Of a stretch of 63,030 bases of DNA, positions 58,792 through 63,030 are shown piece by piece. How positions within the stretch are numbered: the stretch's first letter is position 1; each line of letters begins with the position of its first letter. The notes below the pieces were generated by a model. It saw only the letters and a list, made by a program, of their open reading frames with translations. It was not told where the DNA came from and did not search any database. The translations under genes were made by a program, and so were the position numbers. Location of the stretch: assembly GCA_904373265.1 (NCBI GenBank), contig CAJFEE010000017.1:1-63030 (forward strand), written 5' to 3'. This stretch comes from Candidatus Harrysmithiimonas galli (GTDB lineage: Bacteria; Bacillota; Bacilli; CAJFEE01).

Positions 58792-59217
58792 ATGGGTACA
58801 GTAATCGGATTTCTTACGTATTTTTTTAAACAAGTTTTTTTCTTCGTTTCATTTGTAAAAAACAACACTTTTCCTCAACCATTACCACCCGAAGAAGAAA
58901 AAAAATATTTGGAACAATTTGCAAATGGTAATGCTGATGCACGTAACAAACTCATTGAGCATAATTTACGTCTTGTTGCACATATTGTAAAAAAATTTGA
59001 AAACACTGGTGAGGAGCAAGAAGATCTTATTTCCATTGGCACAATCGGACTAATTAAAGCCGTAGAAAGCTTTTCAAGTGGAAAAGGAACCAAACTTGCA
59101 ACCTATGCCGCACGATGTATCGAGAATGAAATCTCACTTGCAAGAGTTACAACAAAAAGAGAAAGAAAAACCGCTATTAATAAAGAAATACGGTTATTTC
59201 TTCCCCCTGTACAATGA
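58792..59217 (+). CDS. sigK: RNA polymerase sigma-K factor, N-terminal part (disrupted by skin-like element)
   Basis: The first 113 codons (58792–59130) are sigma-K. A hydrophobic pro-sequence of about 20 residues ([20 protein letters not shown]) would be removed by SpoIVFB; then [60 protein letters not shown] and [10 protein letters not shown] follow, very close to B. subtilis. After ENE the reading continues for 29 foreign codons and stops at 59217. Regions 3 and 4 of the factor are absent from the window, so the gene must be rejoined by excision, as in B. subtilis (spoIVCB/spoIIIC). AAGGAGAG lies six bases before the ATG. Confidence 0.95.
59125..59129 (+). other. Recombination core site AATGA of the sigK element (left end)
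   Basis: AATGA lies within codons Asn-Glu of CIENE, the same position and 5-bp core as the B. subtilis skin junction. Left of it sequence follows sigK; right of it the homology ends. The partner site lies beyond the window. Confidence 0.75.
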
Positions 59218-60670
59218 CCTCTTTGATTGCCATTCGAATCAATACTTTTTTATCCTCTTCATTTAAATTCTTTTCTCTTGCCAAATAAAAAGAAATAGCC
59301 TGTTTTAAACCACTACCATCCAAATTTCCTTTTGTGTTTATTTCTTTTTCAATCCGTTCCTTTTCCTGAATCAATGCATTCTCCTCATCTCTGATTTCAC
59401 GGAGCTGCACTTTAATTTCCTCAACATCTCTTTCATCTTCCAACACAGCAAATAACCTCATTGTCCGTTTAGCTGCAAGCTTTTTCTTTTCAATTTCTTC
59501 TATAATACGCTCAATTTCTTTACTTAAATAGTCCTTAGTTTTATCTTTTATTTCTTGTCTTTTTTCAATGTTTTGCTGATCCTTTAGTACATCTTCCAAC
59601 GTGTTCCAAACGTACTTGTCCAACTTATTCATAGAAATTGAACGACCACAGCCATTTTTTTGTCCAGCAGAGTTTTTTCTACAAGTATATCTAAAATAGT
59701 CTTTCCCACGAGATTTGGTATTGCGACCATTCATAGTTGAACCACAGCTACATCTTAAAATTCCGGATAATAGATAGTCTCTTCTAGGCTGCATAATACT
59801 CAATCTTCTAATATTACCTAACCGCTGTTGCGCCAGTTCAAAATCTTCTTTAGAAATAATAGCTGGTATCTCAGTTATAACCCACTCTTTTTCATCCCTG
59901 ATCTTTTCAACTGCTTTTTCCCCAGATTGTCTTTTAACATATATTCCTGTAGAATCATATCGATTTTGAATATATATCCCAGTATAAGCTTGATTTTTAA
60001 GAATTTGGGCAACAACTTGACGATACCATACATTCTTTCCTGTCTTCGTTGGAACACCCATTTTATTCAGATGCTTTGCAATTCCGTTCATTCCAACAAA
60101 ACGTTTCATGGATAAAAATTCCCGAAAAATAAATTGAACAATTTCCGATTCCTTCCTATTAATCGTATAGGTACAATTTTTCTTATCATAATCGTACCCA
60201 TACAATTTATTATCTTTTACAATCTTTCCGGATTGCGCTTTTTTCAATCGCCCAGCAGATGTACGCTGCTTAATTTTTTCTTTTTCAAACTCTGCAATGG
60301 CTCCTCGCATAGAAAAAAACAAAGTACCTTCCGGTGTGTTGGCATAGTCTCCATTTACAAACTCTACATCTATACCACATTTCTTAAATTCATCATCAAG
60401 CATTAATTGATGCATAAGTTTACGTGACAGACGATCCGGATCATAGCAGACAATTTTGGTAATCAATCCTTCTACAGCATCATTTCTTAATTGAATTAAC
60501 CCTTGCCGTTTTAAAATTTCTCCAGATATGCCATCATCAATATACAACAAATGTGGCTCGTTATTGATCTTCATTTTGCAGGCCTCGATCTGTGCTTTTA
60601 GACCATAACCCTTGGTCGCCTGCTCCTCTGTTGAAACTCTTGCATATATCGCTATCACCTGTCTGTGCAC
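59177..60670 (-). CDS. spoIVCA: Site-specific serine recombinase (SpoIVCA-like sigK excisase)
   Basis: Up to 497 residues, as in SpoIVCA (500). The resolvase domain carries the catalytic Ser in [16 protein letters not shown] and the motifs [37 protein letters not shown] recombinase domain (residues 155–280), zinc ribbon ([10 protein letters not shown] ... CRKNSAG ... CGRSIS) and coiled-coil C-terminus follow. It should excise the element in the mother cell. The gene converges on sigK, next to the junction. The start is uncertain: the GTG at 60670 is too near AAGGAG; the GTG four codons later (60658) gives MIAIYARVS as in relatives, with coupling to the upstream gene. Confidence 0.93.
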
Positions 60671-60758
60671 GCTCCTTTATGATTTTCTCTATAATGTAAT
60701 CATAACACTGATTCAATACACGTTCAGTTTCACTGCCAAAAACAACCTTGACTTTCAT
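60561..60758 (-). CDS. Small protein overlapping the recombinase start
   Basis: 65 residues, MKVKVVFGSETERVLNQCYD at the start, in a frame different from the recombinase. AGGAGG lies eight bases before its ATG, far better than the site of the recombinase, and it covers 110 bp of the recombinase 5' end. Its first 40 residues look like an ordered helical peptide; the last part is dictated by the overlap. A similar small gene ahead of SpoIVCA-type recombinases may exist but I cannot verify this. It probably couples translation of the recombinase and may be a recombination directionality factor; that function is a guess. Confidence 0.6.
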   Translation of the reverse strand: MKVKVVFGSETERVLNQCYDYIIEKIIKERAQTGDSDICKSFNRGAGDQGLWSKSTDRGLQNEDQ

Positions 60759-60817: not shown

Positions 60818-61126
60818 TTAACATTTCAATACATCTTATGTTAGGGTTCAAATTGTATGATTATATAATTTATATTTTTCATTATACAAAGGCAATATTA
60901 AAACATCAATATATACCTCCACCACCACAATTTCTTGATCAAATCACTTCCCTATTCTTCTTTCAACTAAAAAAACAAAAAGCAGTACAAACAAAACATA
61001 CATTTCTTGTTTTCTTATTTTAAGAAATAAATGATGGTCTATTTTCAATAAAAAAATTATGTAGGAATTGTTTACAAAAAAGTATTATAATGTTTTGGTT
61101 ATCATCAAAAGTTCAACAAAATAAAA
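60818..61126. other. Spacer between recombinase operon and protease
   Basis: About 310 bp, AT-rich. No gene is supported beyond a 14-codon W-rich frame judged to be chance. Confidence 0.4.
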
Positions 61127-61167
61127 AATCACATAATACCAATTTTTTATGATTGTATTATGTGATT
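61127..61167 (-). terminator. Terminator of the protease gene
   Basis: AATCACATAATAC (61127–61139) pairs perfectly with GTATTATGTGATT (61155–61167) over 13 bp. On the minus strand it is followed by TTTTATTTTG. It lies 11 bases past the protease stop. Confidence 0.8.
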
Positions 61168-61178
61168 CTTACTTTCTA

Positions 61179-62450
61179 CTATGCCCATTTTCTAGTTAAC
61201 TTAAACCTTTGATTATTCCCACCATGATAAGGAAATTGGATTGCCTCTGTATAATTACTTGTAGAACTACCAGTCATATCCAATACTTGCCCCGTTTTTA
61301 CATTTGTAATTACACATTCATACTCTTTAAGCCAACCATCTGAGATTGTTCTGACAAGAGAAATTCTCCATAACTGTTCATCCCCACCTGTATATGGAAA
61401 TTGAATAATAGGTGTTTCCTGTGCCATATCTCCTCTTGCAACTTCTAGCACTTTACCAGACTTATTGTTGGTAATTTTATATTTTCCGTCTTGGACATGT
61501 TGAATGGTCCAAAATTGATAATCTGCCCAATTTTCGCTATTTGTATAAGTAGCTTGATAAACATGTTCACTGGACTCGCTATTTGGAACTCTCAATGCTT
61601 TATCACTTGCACTTAATGGCGAAATAATATAGCCACCATTTAAAATAGACGGTTGATTTTTTTTATTCATTATATTTGTGTACCAATTATAAACTTCATC
61701 AGTAATTCGTACAGCCCCATTTTCTTTATTTCTATCATAAACTGCATTGTGAATTCCATAAACGTCATAATTCCATGCCCCTATTTTATTGGTGGATTCT
61801 TTATATACAGGTCCTCCACTCATTCCTCCCTCAGAGTCCATATCATAAATCATAACAAACTGATTGCTACGAAGTAATTTTCCTGTTCCCATATACACTG
61901 TTCTTCCATTTTTTGGTAAAACACCTGCCAAATTTAAGCTCATACCATCAGTAAGTGTACCTTCTTTATAAAGTCTGAAATTTTTCCAGTAATCTGGATA
62001 CAGATCTTTAGATAACGGTGCATTTAAAATTAATGCTGCATAATCATCTGTAAGACTTCCTGATAAATCTAGATCCCCCACTACCCAACTTATATACCTT
62101 GGGTTAATCTCTATCTTATCTATTTTATAAGGCCCTCCCCATGTATTATTTTTGGTCGGAACATAGATAGATACAGATTTTGCATACTCCTTTCTATCGG
62201 CATCATAGACACAGTGCGCAGCTGTTGCAACGACATGATCACTAATAAAAAAACCAGTTCCCGATGCTTGACCGTAGGAAAATTCTGAAATAATATTCAC
62301 CATACTATTATATGGTGCTTTTGAAATATCAGATATAGGAACCCTATCATCCGTACCCACAATGCTTGAACCTTCCGCAGATACTTTTTCGTTTCCACTA
62401 CCAATAATCAATGCGAAAATACAAACAAACATAAGAAAAAATCTCTTCAT
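61179..62450 (-). CDS. Secreted trypsin-like (glutamyl endopeptidase, S1B-like) protease with ricin-type lectin domain
   Basis: 423 residues. A clear signal peptide (MKRFFLMFVCIFALIIGS ... VSAEG). The protease domain (residues 40–265) shows the chymotrypsin-fold triad: His in VVATAAHCVYD, Asp in LTDDYAALIL and Ser in DSEGGMSGGPVY, like V8/Bacillus glutamyl endopeptidases. Residues 275–423 form a ricin-type beta-trefoil: two or three repeats ending QFWTIQ, QLWRIS and QRFKLT, with ILNGGYIISPLSASDKALR at its start. It would be released and bind a glycan, perhaps wall or mucin. A ribosome site (GGGAGGGTGTT) precedes the ATG. It is cargo of the sigK element, which is unexpected for a region lost in the mother cell. 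Confidence 0.88.
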   Translation of the reverse strand: MKRFFLMFVCIFALIIGSGNEKVSAEGSSIVGTDDRVPISDISKAPYNSMVNIISEFSYGQASGTGFFISDHVVATAAHCVYDADRKEYAKSVSIYVPTKNNTWGGPYKIDKIEINPRYISWVVGDLDLSGSLTDDYAALILNAPLSKDLYPDYWKNFRLYKEGTLTDGMSLNLAGVLPKNGRTVYMGTGKLLRSNQFVMIYDMDSEGGMSGGPVYKESTNKIGAWNYDVYGIHNAVYDRNKENGAVRITDEVYNWYTNIMNKKNQPSILNGGYIISPLSASDKALRVPNSESSEHVYQATYTNSENWADYQFWTIQHVQDGKYKITNNKSGKVLEVARGDMAQETPIIQFPYTGGDEQLWRISLVRTISDGWLKEYECVITNVKTGQVLDMTGSSTSNYTEAIQFPYHGGNNQRFKLTRKWA

Positions 62451-62518: not shown

Positions 62519-62836
62519 TCATAAAAATTTAACTTTCACATAATATTCACAAAAGCAGATTTCCACGCCAATACTCGTCATATTCCCTTTTCCTATACCA
62601 TCGCTACAATGCATGCGTTCTGGGTGTCCTCTCTTATACCTGAATGATTCCTTGATCATCCACAGCATAATGGGAACTTGTAGCATGGTTATTTCTTAAC
62701 ATATATGAAATTTCATTTGCCGCACTTCTGACATTTGCGGTGTTGTGTACTGTACTGTAATGTATGATAGTTTCATAGTGTTTGGACATTTGATGTTGCA
62801 TTTATTTTTGGGTAAAAATTGTTTTTTGATTTGCAT
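62519..62836 (-). pseudogene. Frameshifted CwlA-like N-acetylmuramoyl-L-alanine amidase
   Basis: AAGGAGG stands seven bases before the ATG at 62836. Three pieces in different frames match one amidase_2 protein: KNKCNIKCPNTMKLSYITVQY, then RSAANEISYMLRNNHATSS and HYAVDDQGIIQ (stop at 62634), then HCSDGIGKGNMTSIGVEIC (stop at 62519). These correspond in order to NVKCP..MTPKYITVHNT, EVAYMIRN..SFHYAVDD and H..DG.G.GN..SIGVEI of phage endolysins such as XlyA/CwlA. At least two frameshifts and a missing middle (zinc-binding His region) make it nonfunctional. The B. subtilis skin carries cwlA, so this supports a shared prophage ancestry. Confidence 0.8.
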
Positions 62837-62858
62837 AACAAATCCTCCTTAAAATAGA

Positions 62859-62887
62859 AAAAGCCCTACCCATTTGGTAAGACTTTT
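62859..62887 (-). terminator. Terminator of the type I toxin mRNA
   Basis: On the minus strand AAAAG and TTACC pair, with small bulges, with GGTA and CTTTT around a short loop, and CTTTTTCTATTTT follows. It would end a transcript coming from the right edge, after crossing the whole antisense RNA. Confidence 0.55.
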
Positions 62888-62888
62888 A

Positions 62889-62917
62889 TTGACGTATATT
62901 TTTTGTTTTGCTAGAAT
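62889..62917 (+). promoter_or_regulatory. Sigma-A promoter of the antisense antitoxin RNA
   Basis: TTGACG, a spacer of exactly 17 bases, then TAGAAT: five of six matches in both hexamers. Transcription would start near 62924, toward the toxin. Confidence 0.75.
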
Positions 62918-62923
62918 AAACTT

Positions 62924-63006
62924 AAAGAAGGGTTACTGCCTTTGGTCAGGCGGTTAGTCCTAGAATTGTTCTAAACCGCTCTTATCAAAGGGCGGTTATT
63001 TCTTTT
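62924..63006 (+). ncRNA. RatA/SR4-like antisense antitoxin RNA
   Basis: No coding potential. Two stable hairpins: ACTGCCT/AGGCGGT (around 62954) and a ten-pair terminator stem AACCGCTCTT/AAGGGCGGTT (62974–62997) followed by a T-rich tract ending TTTCTTTTT. The RNA overlaps the 3' end of a convergent small toxin gene, as in the TxpA/RatA and BsrG/SR4 pairs of B. subtilis, where the antisense RNA triggers degradation of toxin mRNA. Boundaries are approximate. Confidence 0.65.
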
Positions 63007-63030
63007 TATGTGTTAAACATAAAGAAATGA
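62996..63030 (-). CDS. Type I toxin (holin-like small membrane peptide), C-terminal fragment cut by window edge
   Basis: Only the last ten codons are in the window: ISLCLTHKKK then TAA. A hydrophobic stretch ending in a lysine cluster and immediately followed by AACCGCCC-type terminator stem is typical of TxpA/BsrG-family toxins. The antisense RNA promoter faces it. The remaining 20–50 residues lie beyond the edge. Identification depends on the arrangement rather than on the peptide. Confidence 0.5.
   Translation of the reverse strand, partial: ISLCLTHKKK

What the first reader, a model, noticed from the sequence alone, without database searches (positions are those of the whole stretch)
61179..62450. 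Protease–lectin cargo inside a sporulation-excised element
A complete, secreted glutamyl-endopeptidase-like protease fused to a ricin-type beta-trefoil sits within 2.3 kb of the sigK junction, flanked by decayed prophage genes, with its own ribosome site and terminator. It is the only evidently healthy cargo gene here. A gene lost from the mother cell but retained in the spore genome could only be used in vegetative or outgrowing cells, suggesting a role apart from sporulation, such as nutrient release or host/glycan attachment. I know of no skin element described with such cargo.
Basis: inference. Interest (0 to 1): 0.6.

Follow-up and report, generated by a model that had tools for sequence, protein, structure and literature searches.

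The report
Protease-lectin gene inside sigK element
A small DNA element that splits the sporulation gene sigK, and must be cut out before that gene works, carries an intact gene for a secreted protein-cutting enzyme joined to a sugar-binding domain, most likely a passenger left by a decayed virus; the element type is known, but its small size and this passenger seem undescribed.

Summary
ORF 61179-62450(-) encodes a 423-aa secreted trypsin-fold protease with a glutamyl-endopeptidase-like pocket and a C-terminal ricin-type beta-trefoil. It does lie inside a sigK-intervening (skin-type) element. The window ends inside the element, but its last 99 bases are exactly the first 99 of contig C28, which holds the missing 3' half of sigK. 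Direct joining gives a 5,173-bp element between two copies of ATCGAGAATGAAAT. Removing it restores a 236-codon pro-sigK that scores 357 bits against a 299-bit SigK cut-off. The same-family genome has an uninterrupted sigK. The element is a prophage remnant: recombinase, protease-lectin, broken endolysin, a possible small toxin ORF. The cargo sits between lysin and integrase, where phages often carry conversion genes. A 71%-identical paralogue sits in ordinary chromosome (dN/dS about 0.2), so the gene is maintained but not specific to the element. No other sigK element examined carries this protein, though several carry other secreted proteins. Cargo on skin elements is known (ars, restriction-modification), so this is a new member of a known kind. 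Incidental and more striking: some relatives have sigK cut into three or four pieces by two or three elements.

The parts
58792..59217 (+). 5' half of sigK (141-aa ORF; first about 112-117 codons are sigK, the rest runs into the element)
   Evidence: TIGR02846 spore_sigmaK 182 bits against a cut-off of 298.65; the 3' half is on contig C28, L012 1349-1744
59119..59132 (+). attL-type recombination core ATCGAGAATGAAAT, repeated as the right-hand core at L012 (C28) 1361-1374
   Evidence: 14-bp exact direct repeat, single copy in the window; contains AATGA, the core reported for B. subtilis skin and some B. cereus sigK insertions
59177..60670 (-). large serine recombinase (SpoIVCA type), 497 aa, intact
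   Evidence: Resolvase, Recombinase and Zn_ribbon_recom domains over cut-off; most of its nearest relatives sit at split sigK genes
60561..60758 (-). small ORF with strong ribosome site (AGGAGG) overlapping the recombinase start; possible leader or directionality factor, unproven
   Evidence: sequence; no significant family match
60852..60880 (-). candidate sigma-E promoter of the recombinase (GAAAAAT-14-CATACAAT)
   Evidence: 13 of 15 consensus matches, reached in 6 of 300 shuffles; equivalent sites not significant in relatives; abuts a sigma-70-like site at 60881-60909
61127..61167 (-). terminator hairpin of the protease-lectin gene
   Evidence: 13-bp perfect inverted repeat followed by a T-rich run
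61179..62450 (-). protease-lectin gene, 423 aa: signal peptide (about residues 1-26), S1 protease (about 30-262; triad candidates H79, D136, S211; pocket H234), ricin-type beta-trefoil (272-423; QFW, QLW, QRF motifs)
62522..62836 (-). frameshifted, truncated remnant of a phage N-acetylmuramoyl-L-alanine amidase (endolysin)
   Evidence: phrog_3088 amidase E 5.6e-11 for the first 66 residues, read by eye across frames; coding breaks into two frames
62932..63030 (.). 99-base exact overlap with the first 99 bases of contig C28; the right end of the element continues on C28 to the core at L012 1361-1374
   Evidence: full 99/99 match only at these two contig ends

Best explanation
The gene is a passenger on a small (5.17 kb by direct join) sigK-intervening element of the skin type. 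A phage with an SpoIVCA-like serine recombinase integrated into sigK at the codons ...ENE|I... and then decayed to its recombinase, a broken endolysin, a possible small toxin and this one maintained cargo gene. The cargo lies between lysin and integrase, a place typical of lysogenic-conversion genes. In the mother cell the recombinase is expected to excise the element and rebuild pro-sigK, so that cell loses the cargo gene while the spore keeps it. The encoded protein is expected to be secreted without a long pro-peptide, to cut after acidic residues (glutamyl-endopeptidase-like), and to be held on glycans by its beta-trefoil. Its likeliest role is extracellular protein digestion at a glycan-bearing surface during growth. 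Shown: gene, domains, element boundaries, reconstruction of sigK, recombinase relatives at split sigK genes, endolysin decay, purifying selection between paralogues. Inferred: excision in the mother cell, phage-conversion origin, Glu specificity, glycan binding, biological role.
For: sigK halves on C17 and C28 with a 99-nt contig overlap and a 14-bp direct repeat; joining the flanks gives an uninterrupted 236-aa SigK with pro-sequence, 357.5 bits against cut-off 298.65, while the halves score 179.8 and 172.6. The same-family genome G001 has an intact sigK (370 bits). At least 23 of the 30 recombinase loci returned for the class (window's own included) lie beside a sigK fragment; 12 elements delimited there span about 2.8-16.4 kb. 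Endolysin remnant. Protease matches 1p3c glutamyl endopeptidase, including the G-[IV]-H-N-A-x-Y segment. Paralogues: dN 0.20, dS 0.89.
Against: No excised circle, reads or expression data were available, so excision is not shown. The contig join rests on a 99-nt overlap at the edge of a dispersed repeat, so extra sequence between C17 and C28 cannot be excluded. The conversion-gene origin rests on position only; no phage carrying this gene was found. The gene could equally have been copied from the chromosomal paralogue. The AlphaFold model was unusable (mean pLDDT 32), so fold and triad rest on sequence alone.
Confidence: 0.78

Rival explanations
1. The protease-lectin gene is an ordinary chromosomal gene duplicated into the element, not phage cargo; its location is incidental.
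For: A 71%-identical paralogue lies in ordinary chromosome at G000:C8:27847-29094 among transporter, threonine dehydratase and leuCD genes. About 70 bp of upstream DNA is homologous between the copies (0 of 500 shuffles reach the score). The last about 100 codons are about 90% identical at nucleotide level against 50-83% over the protease part, as if one copy had been partly overwritten by the other.
Against: Overall divergence (71% aa, dS about 0.9) is old, so the element copy has been kept a long time. Which copy is ancestral cannot be told from two sequences; the same-family genome has neither.
Confidence: 0.4
2. The cargo acts in sporulation or germination itself, for example as a forespore or spore-surface protease-lectin, with excision serving to keep it out of the late mother cell.
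For: Only the mother cell would lose the gene. Excision-linked switches matter in C. difficile skin (PMC5025042).
Against: No forespore-type promoter was recognised; the best sigma-E-like match upstream of the gene is weak (11 of 15). The chromosomal paralogue would not be lost on excision. Protein cargo differs between sigK elements.
Confidence: 0.12
3. The gene lies outside the element, because C17 and C28 are wrongly joined or the element ends before 61179.
For: The junction lies at a contig break in a dispersed repeat with 85-94% copies elsewhere.
Against: The full 99-nt overlap is unique to these two ends. The only sigK 3' half in the genome is on C28, and no second core copy occurs in the window.
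Confidence: 0.05

Closest known systems
skin element of Bacillus subtilis (sigK-intervening, SpoIVCA)
   Same: Splits sigK; recombinase gene inside the element; AATGA core; rebuilt gene encodes pro-sigma-K; carries a non-phage cargo (ars operon; PMC12607644)
   Different: About 42-48 kb and phage-rich against 5.17 kb; different cargo
skinCd of Clostridioides difficile (CD1231 recombinase, CD1234 directionality factor)
   Same: sigK element with a large serine recombinase, excised in the mother cell (PMC5025042)
   Different: SigK there lacks a pro-sequence, which is present here; 19 genes of different content; no CD1234 counterpart identified here
sigK insertions of the Bacillus cereus group (Bcbva island IV, AH820, J7)
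   Same: Elements in sigK that rebuild the gene; [quoted passage not shown]
   Different: 21-39 kb; no protease-lectin reported
gin element in gerE of B. cereus ATCC10987
   Same: Non-phage element interrupting a late sporulation gene, excised by a serine recombinase (PMC5595907)
   Different: Different target gene and contents
Bacillus intermedius glutamyl endopeptidase (PDB 1p3c)
   Same: Best protease match among solved structures; shared APYNS start and G-[IV]-H-N-A-x-Y pocket segment
   Different: Only E 2e-6 over the domain; no lectin domain

Membership tests
sigK-intervening (skin-type) element | sigK split into two halves that become one gene when the element is removed | tested here: met
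   flanks joined at the 14-bp repeat give full-length pro-sigK, 357.5 bits against cut-off 298.65
sigK-intervening (skin-type) element | site-specific recombinase encoded inside the element | tested here: met
   intact large serine recombinase beside the sigK 5' half; relatives beside split sigK genes
sigK-intervening (skin-type) element | short direct repeats at the two ends | tested here: met
   14-bp repeat containing AATGA
sigK-intervening (skin-type) element | excision restricted to the mother cell during sporulation | not testable with these tools
   No reads or expression data; only a candidate sigma-E promoter
prophage or prophage remnant | phage structural or lysis genes | tested here: met
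   frameshifted endolysin remnant only; no structural genes recognised
S1 (glutamyl-endopeptidase-like, S1B) protease | His-Asp-Ser triad and S1-pocket His | tested here: met
   TAAHC (H79), DDYA (D136), GMSGGP (S211) and GIHNA (H234), all conserved in the paralogue; by sequence only
S1 (glutamyl-endopeptidase-like, S1B) protease | cleavage after Glu | not testable with these tools
   needs an assay
Ricin-type beta-trefoil lectin | three QxW-type repeats over a C-terminal domain | tested here: met
   RicinB_lectin_2, 69.4 bits; QFW, QLW and QRF read from the sequence
Ricin-type beta-trefoil lectin | glycan binding | not testable with these tools
   needs a binding assay

The most novel reading that the evidence does not exclude
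sigK elements in this class form a recurrent platform for secreted or surface-acting proteins (protease-lectin here; matrixin, polysaccharide deacetylase and F5/8-type domain proteins elsewhere). In some species two or three such elements occupy the same sigK gene, so several independent excisions must all succeed before the gene can be read, making sigK a multi-lock developmental checkpoint.
Probability: 0.3. Interest if true: 0.65.

Novelty: new member of a known kind. Interest (0 to 1): 0.42.

Why it matters
It shows that skin-type elements can shrink to a few kilobases yet keep one maintained secreted-enzyme gene, a clean case for asking why cells tolerate them: for the cargo, for the excision switch, or from inertia. 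Comparison with relatives extends the insertion diversity of sigK and shows genes in three or four pieces, which makes ordered or independent excision directly testable.

Tried and rejected
AlphaFold on the two paralogues gave mean pLDDT 32 and was not used. Two scans of genome contigs found no relative; one viral scan gave a single 29% partial match. Phage and plasmid tblastn gave only separate protease or lectin matches, none covering 80% of the query. One class genome of 399 has a related protease over the protease part only (34%), and one phylum genome a lectin-only match. Rfam gave only two sub-threshold matches, taken as chance. Sigma-70 promoter counts equal chance, so no promoter was assigned to the protease gene. 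A conserved sigma-E promoter upstream of relatives' recombinases was sought and not found. Small frames on the C28 side gave no family.

Full report
The gene. ORF 61179-62450(-) is as described: 423 aa, strong ribosome site, own hairpin terminator, signal peptide, trypsin-fold protease and C-terminal ricin-type beta-trefoil. Residues H79, D136 and S211 fit the catalytic triad and H234 lies in GIHNAVY, matching GVHNAGY of the B. intermedius glutamyl endopeptidase (1p3c, E 2e-6). All four are conserved in the paralogue. There is hardly any room for a pro-peptide between the signal peptide and the APYNS start. Three QxW-type motifs (QFW, QLW, QRF) suggest a complete trefoil. Glu specificity and glycan binding are predictions.

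The element. The window is a whole contig (C17, 63,030 bp) and stops inside the element, so the boundary could not be judged from it. The only 3' half of sigK in the genome is at C28:1358-1714. The last 99 bases of C17 equal the first 99 of C28, and no other contig has a full match. A 14-bp repeat ATCGAGAATGAAAT lies in both sigK halves. Joining the flanks gives an uninterrupted SigK with pro-sequence that passes the SigK equivalog cut-off (357.5 against 298.65), which neither half does. Core to core the element is 5,173 bp if C17 and C28 join directly; more sequence between them cannot be excluded because the break lies in a dispersed repeat (85-94% copies on C42, C5 and C29).

Contents. From the sigK 5' half: recombinase; protease-lectin; endolysin remnant with frameshifts (phrog_3088, E 5.6e-11; a later GNMTSIGVEIC segment in another frame); on C28 a 27-codon hydrophobic ORF with a weak phage-family match (phrog_738, E 0.003), possibly a small toxin; then about 0.9 kb without recognisable genes before the right core. 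The element is thus a decayed prophage. The order lysin, cargo, integrase, att is that of many lysogenic-conversion genes (general knowledge), which is the basis for calling the gene phage cargo. Excision in the mother cell is inferred from the family, not shown.

Relatives. G001, the other genome of the family, has an intact sigK and no protease-lectin. In the class, 48 of 399 sampled genomes have a recombinase match at E <= 1e-60. Of the 30 loci returned, the window's own included, at least 23 have a sigK fragment within the 1.5-kb flanks. Twelve delimited elements span about 2.8-16.4 kb. None carries the protease-lectin, but cargo includes a matrixin-type metallopeptidase (G303), a polysaccharide deacetylase (G065; a similar protein by sequence in G159) and an F5/8-type C protein (G312). 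A crude signal-peptide filter marks 14 of 64 element ORFs (one recombinase false positive removed) against 6 of 102 flanking ORFs. This is exploratory, because the elements are related and the predictor is home-made.

The paralogue. G000:C8:27847-29094 is 71% identical and lies among ordinary chromosomal genes. Nei-Gojobori dN 0.20 and dS 0.89 indicate purifying selection; the last 80 codons have dS 0.39 against 1.27 for the protease part, as expected if that part had been partly converted. About 70 bp upstream is also homologous. So the gene is maintained, is not specific to the element, and could have been copied either way.

Verdict. Skin-type elements with cargo are known: ars in B. subtilis (PMC12607644), restriction-modification in Bcbva (PMC10745906), and whole phages in Alicyclobacillus and C. 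perfringens (PMC13141910). The novelty is the small size and this cargo.

In passing. Tracing relatives showed sigK in more than two pieces. In G159 four pieces lie in order on one contig over about 88 kb (968634 to 1056861), with a recombinase beside each of the three breaks; spliced, they give a SigK of 369.5 bits. G130 gives 373.5 bits with its fourth piece on another contig. G041 and G093, single-contig genomes, have three pieces. None of the ten such genomes searched has an intact SigK match over the cut-off. The breaks fall at VK|KF, NE|I and NE|I. I found no paper describing this, within an open-access library only.

Noticed in passing
G159:C4 968634-1056861; G130:C25 and C19; G391:C11 and C26; G041:C1 2482464-2492556; G093:C1 886962-905967; G072:C2; G294:C1; G011:C6; G065:C2 and C249; G104:C51 and C14: sigK is cut into three or four pieces by two or three elements at codons near 68, 115 and 143, with serine recombinases at the breaks examined; no intact SigK elsewhere in these ten genomes.
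   Followed up: partly
L057, L059, L062, L064, L065, L069 (sigK elements of relatives): Cargo of sigK elements is rich in predicted secreted proteins (14 of 64 ORFs against 6 of 102 in flanks, crude predictor), including a matrixin-type metallopeptidase in G303 and a polysaccharide deacetylase in G065.
   Followed up: partly
L067 15811-18565 (G041): A sigK element of only about 2.75 kb, little more than the recombinase and one regulator-like ORF.
   Followed up: partly
L013 9844-11103 and window 61179-62450: The last about 100 codons of the two protease-lectin paralogues are about 90% identical in DNA against 50-83% over the protease part, suggesting partial gene conversion.
   Followed up: partly
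window 62780-63030; G000:C42:5177-5403, C5:127449-127611, C29:30135-30262: A dispersed repeat (85-94% identical copies) near a short hydrophobic ORF (L012 329-412) lies at the contig break; it may be a type I toxin-antitoxin family.
   Followed up: no
window 60561-60758: A small ORF with a strong ribosome site overlaps the recombinase start; a possible recombination directionality factor or leader.
   Followed up: no
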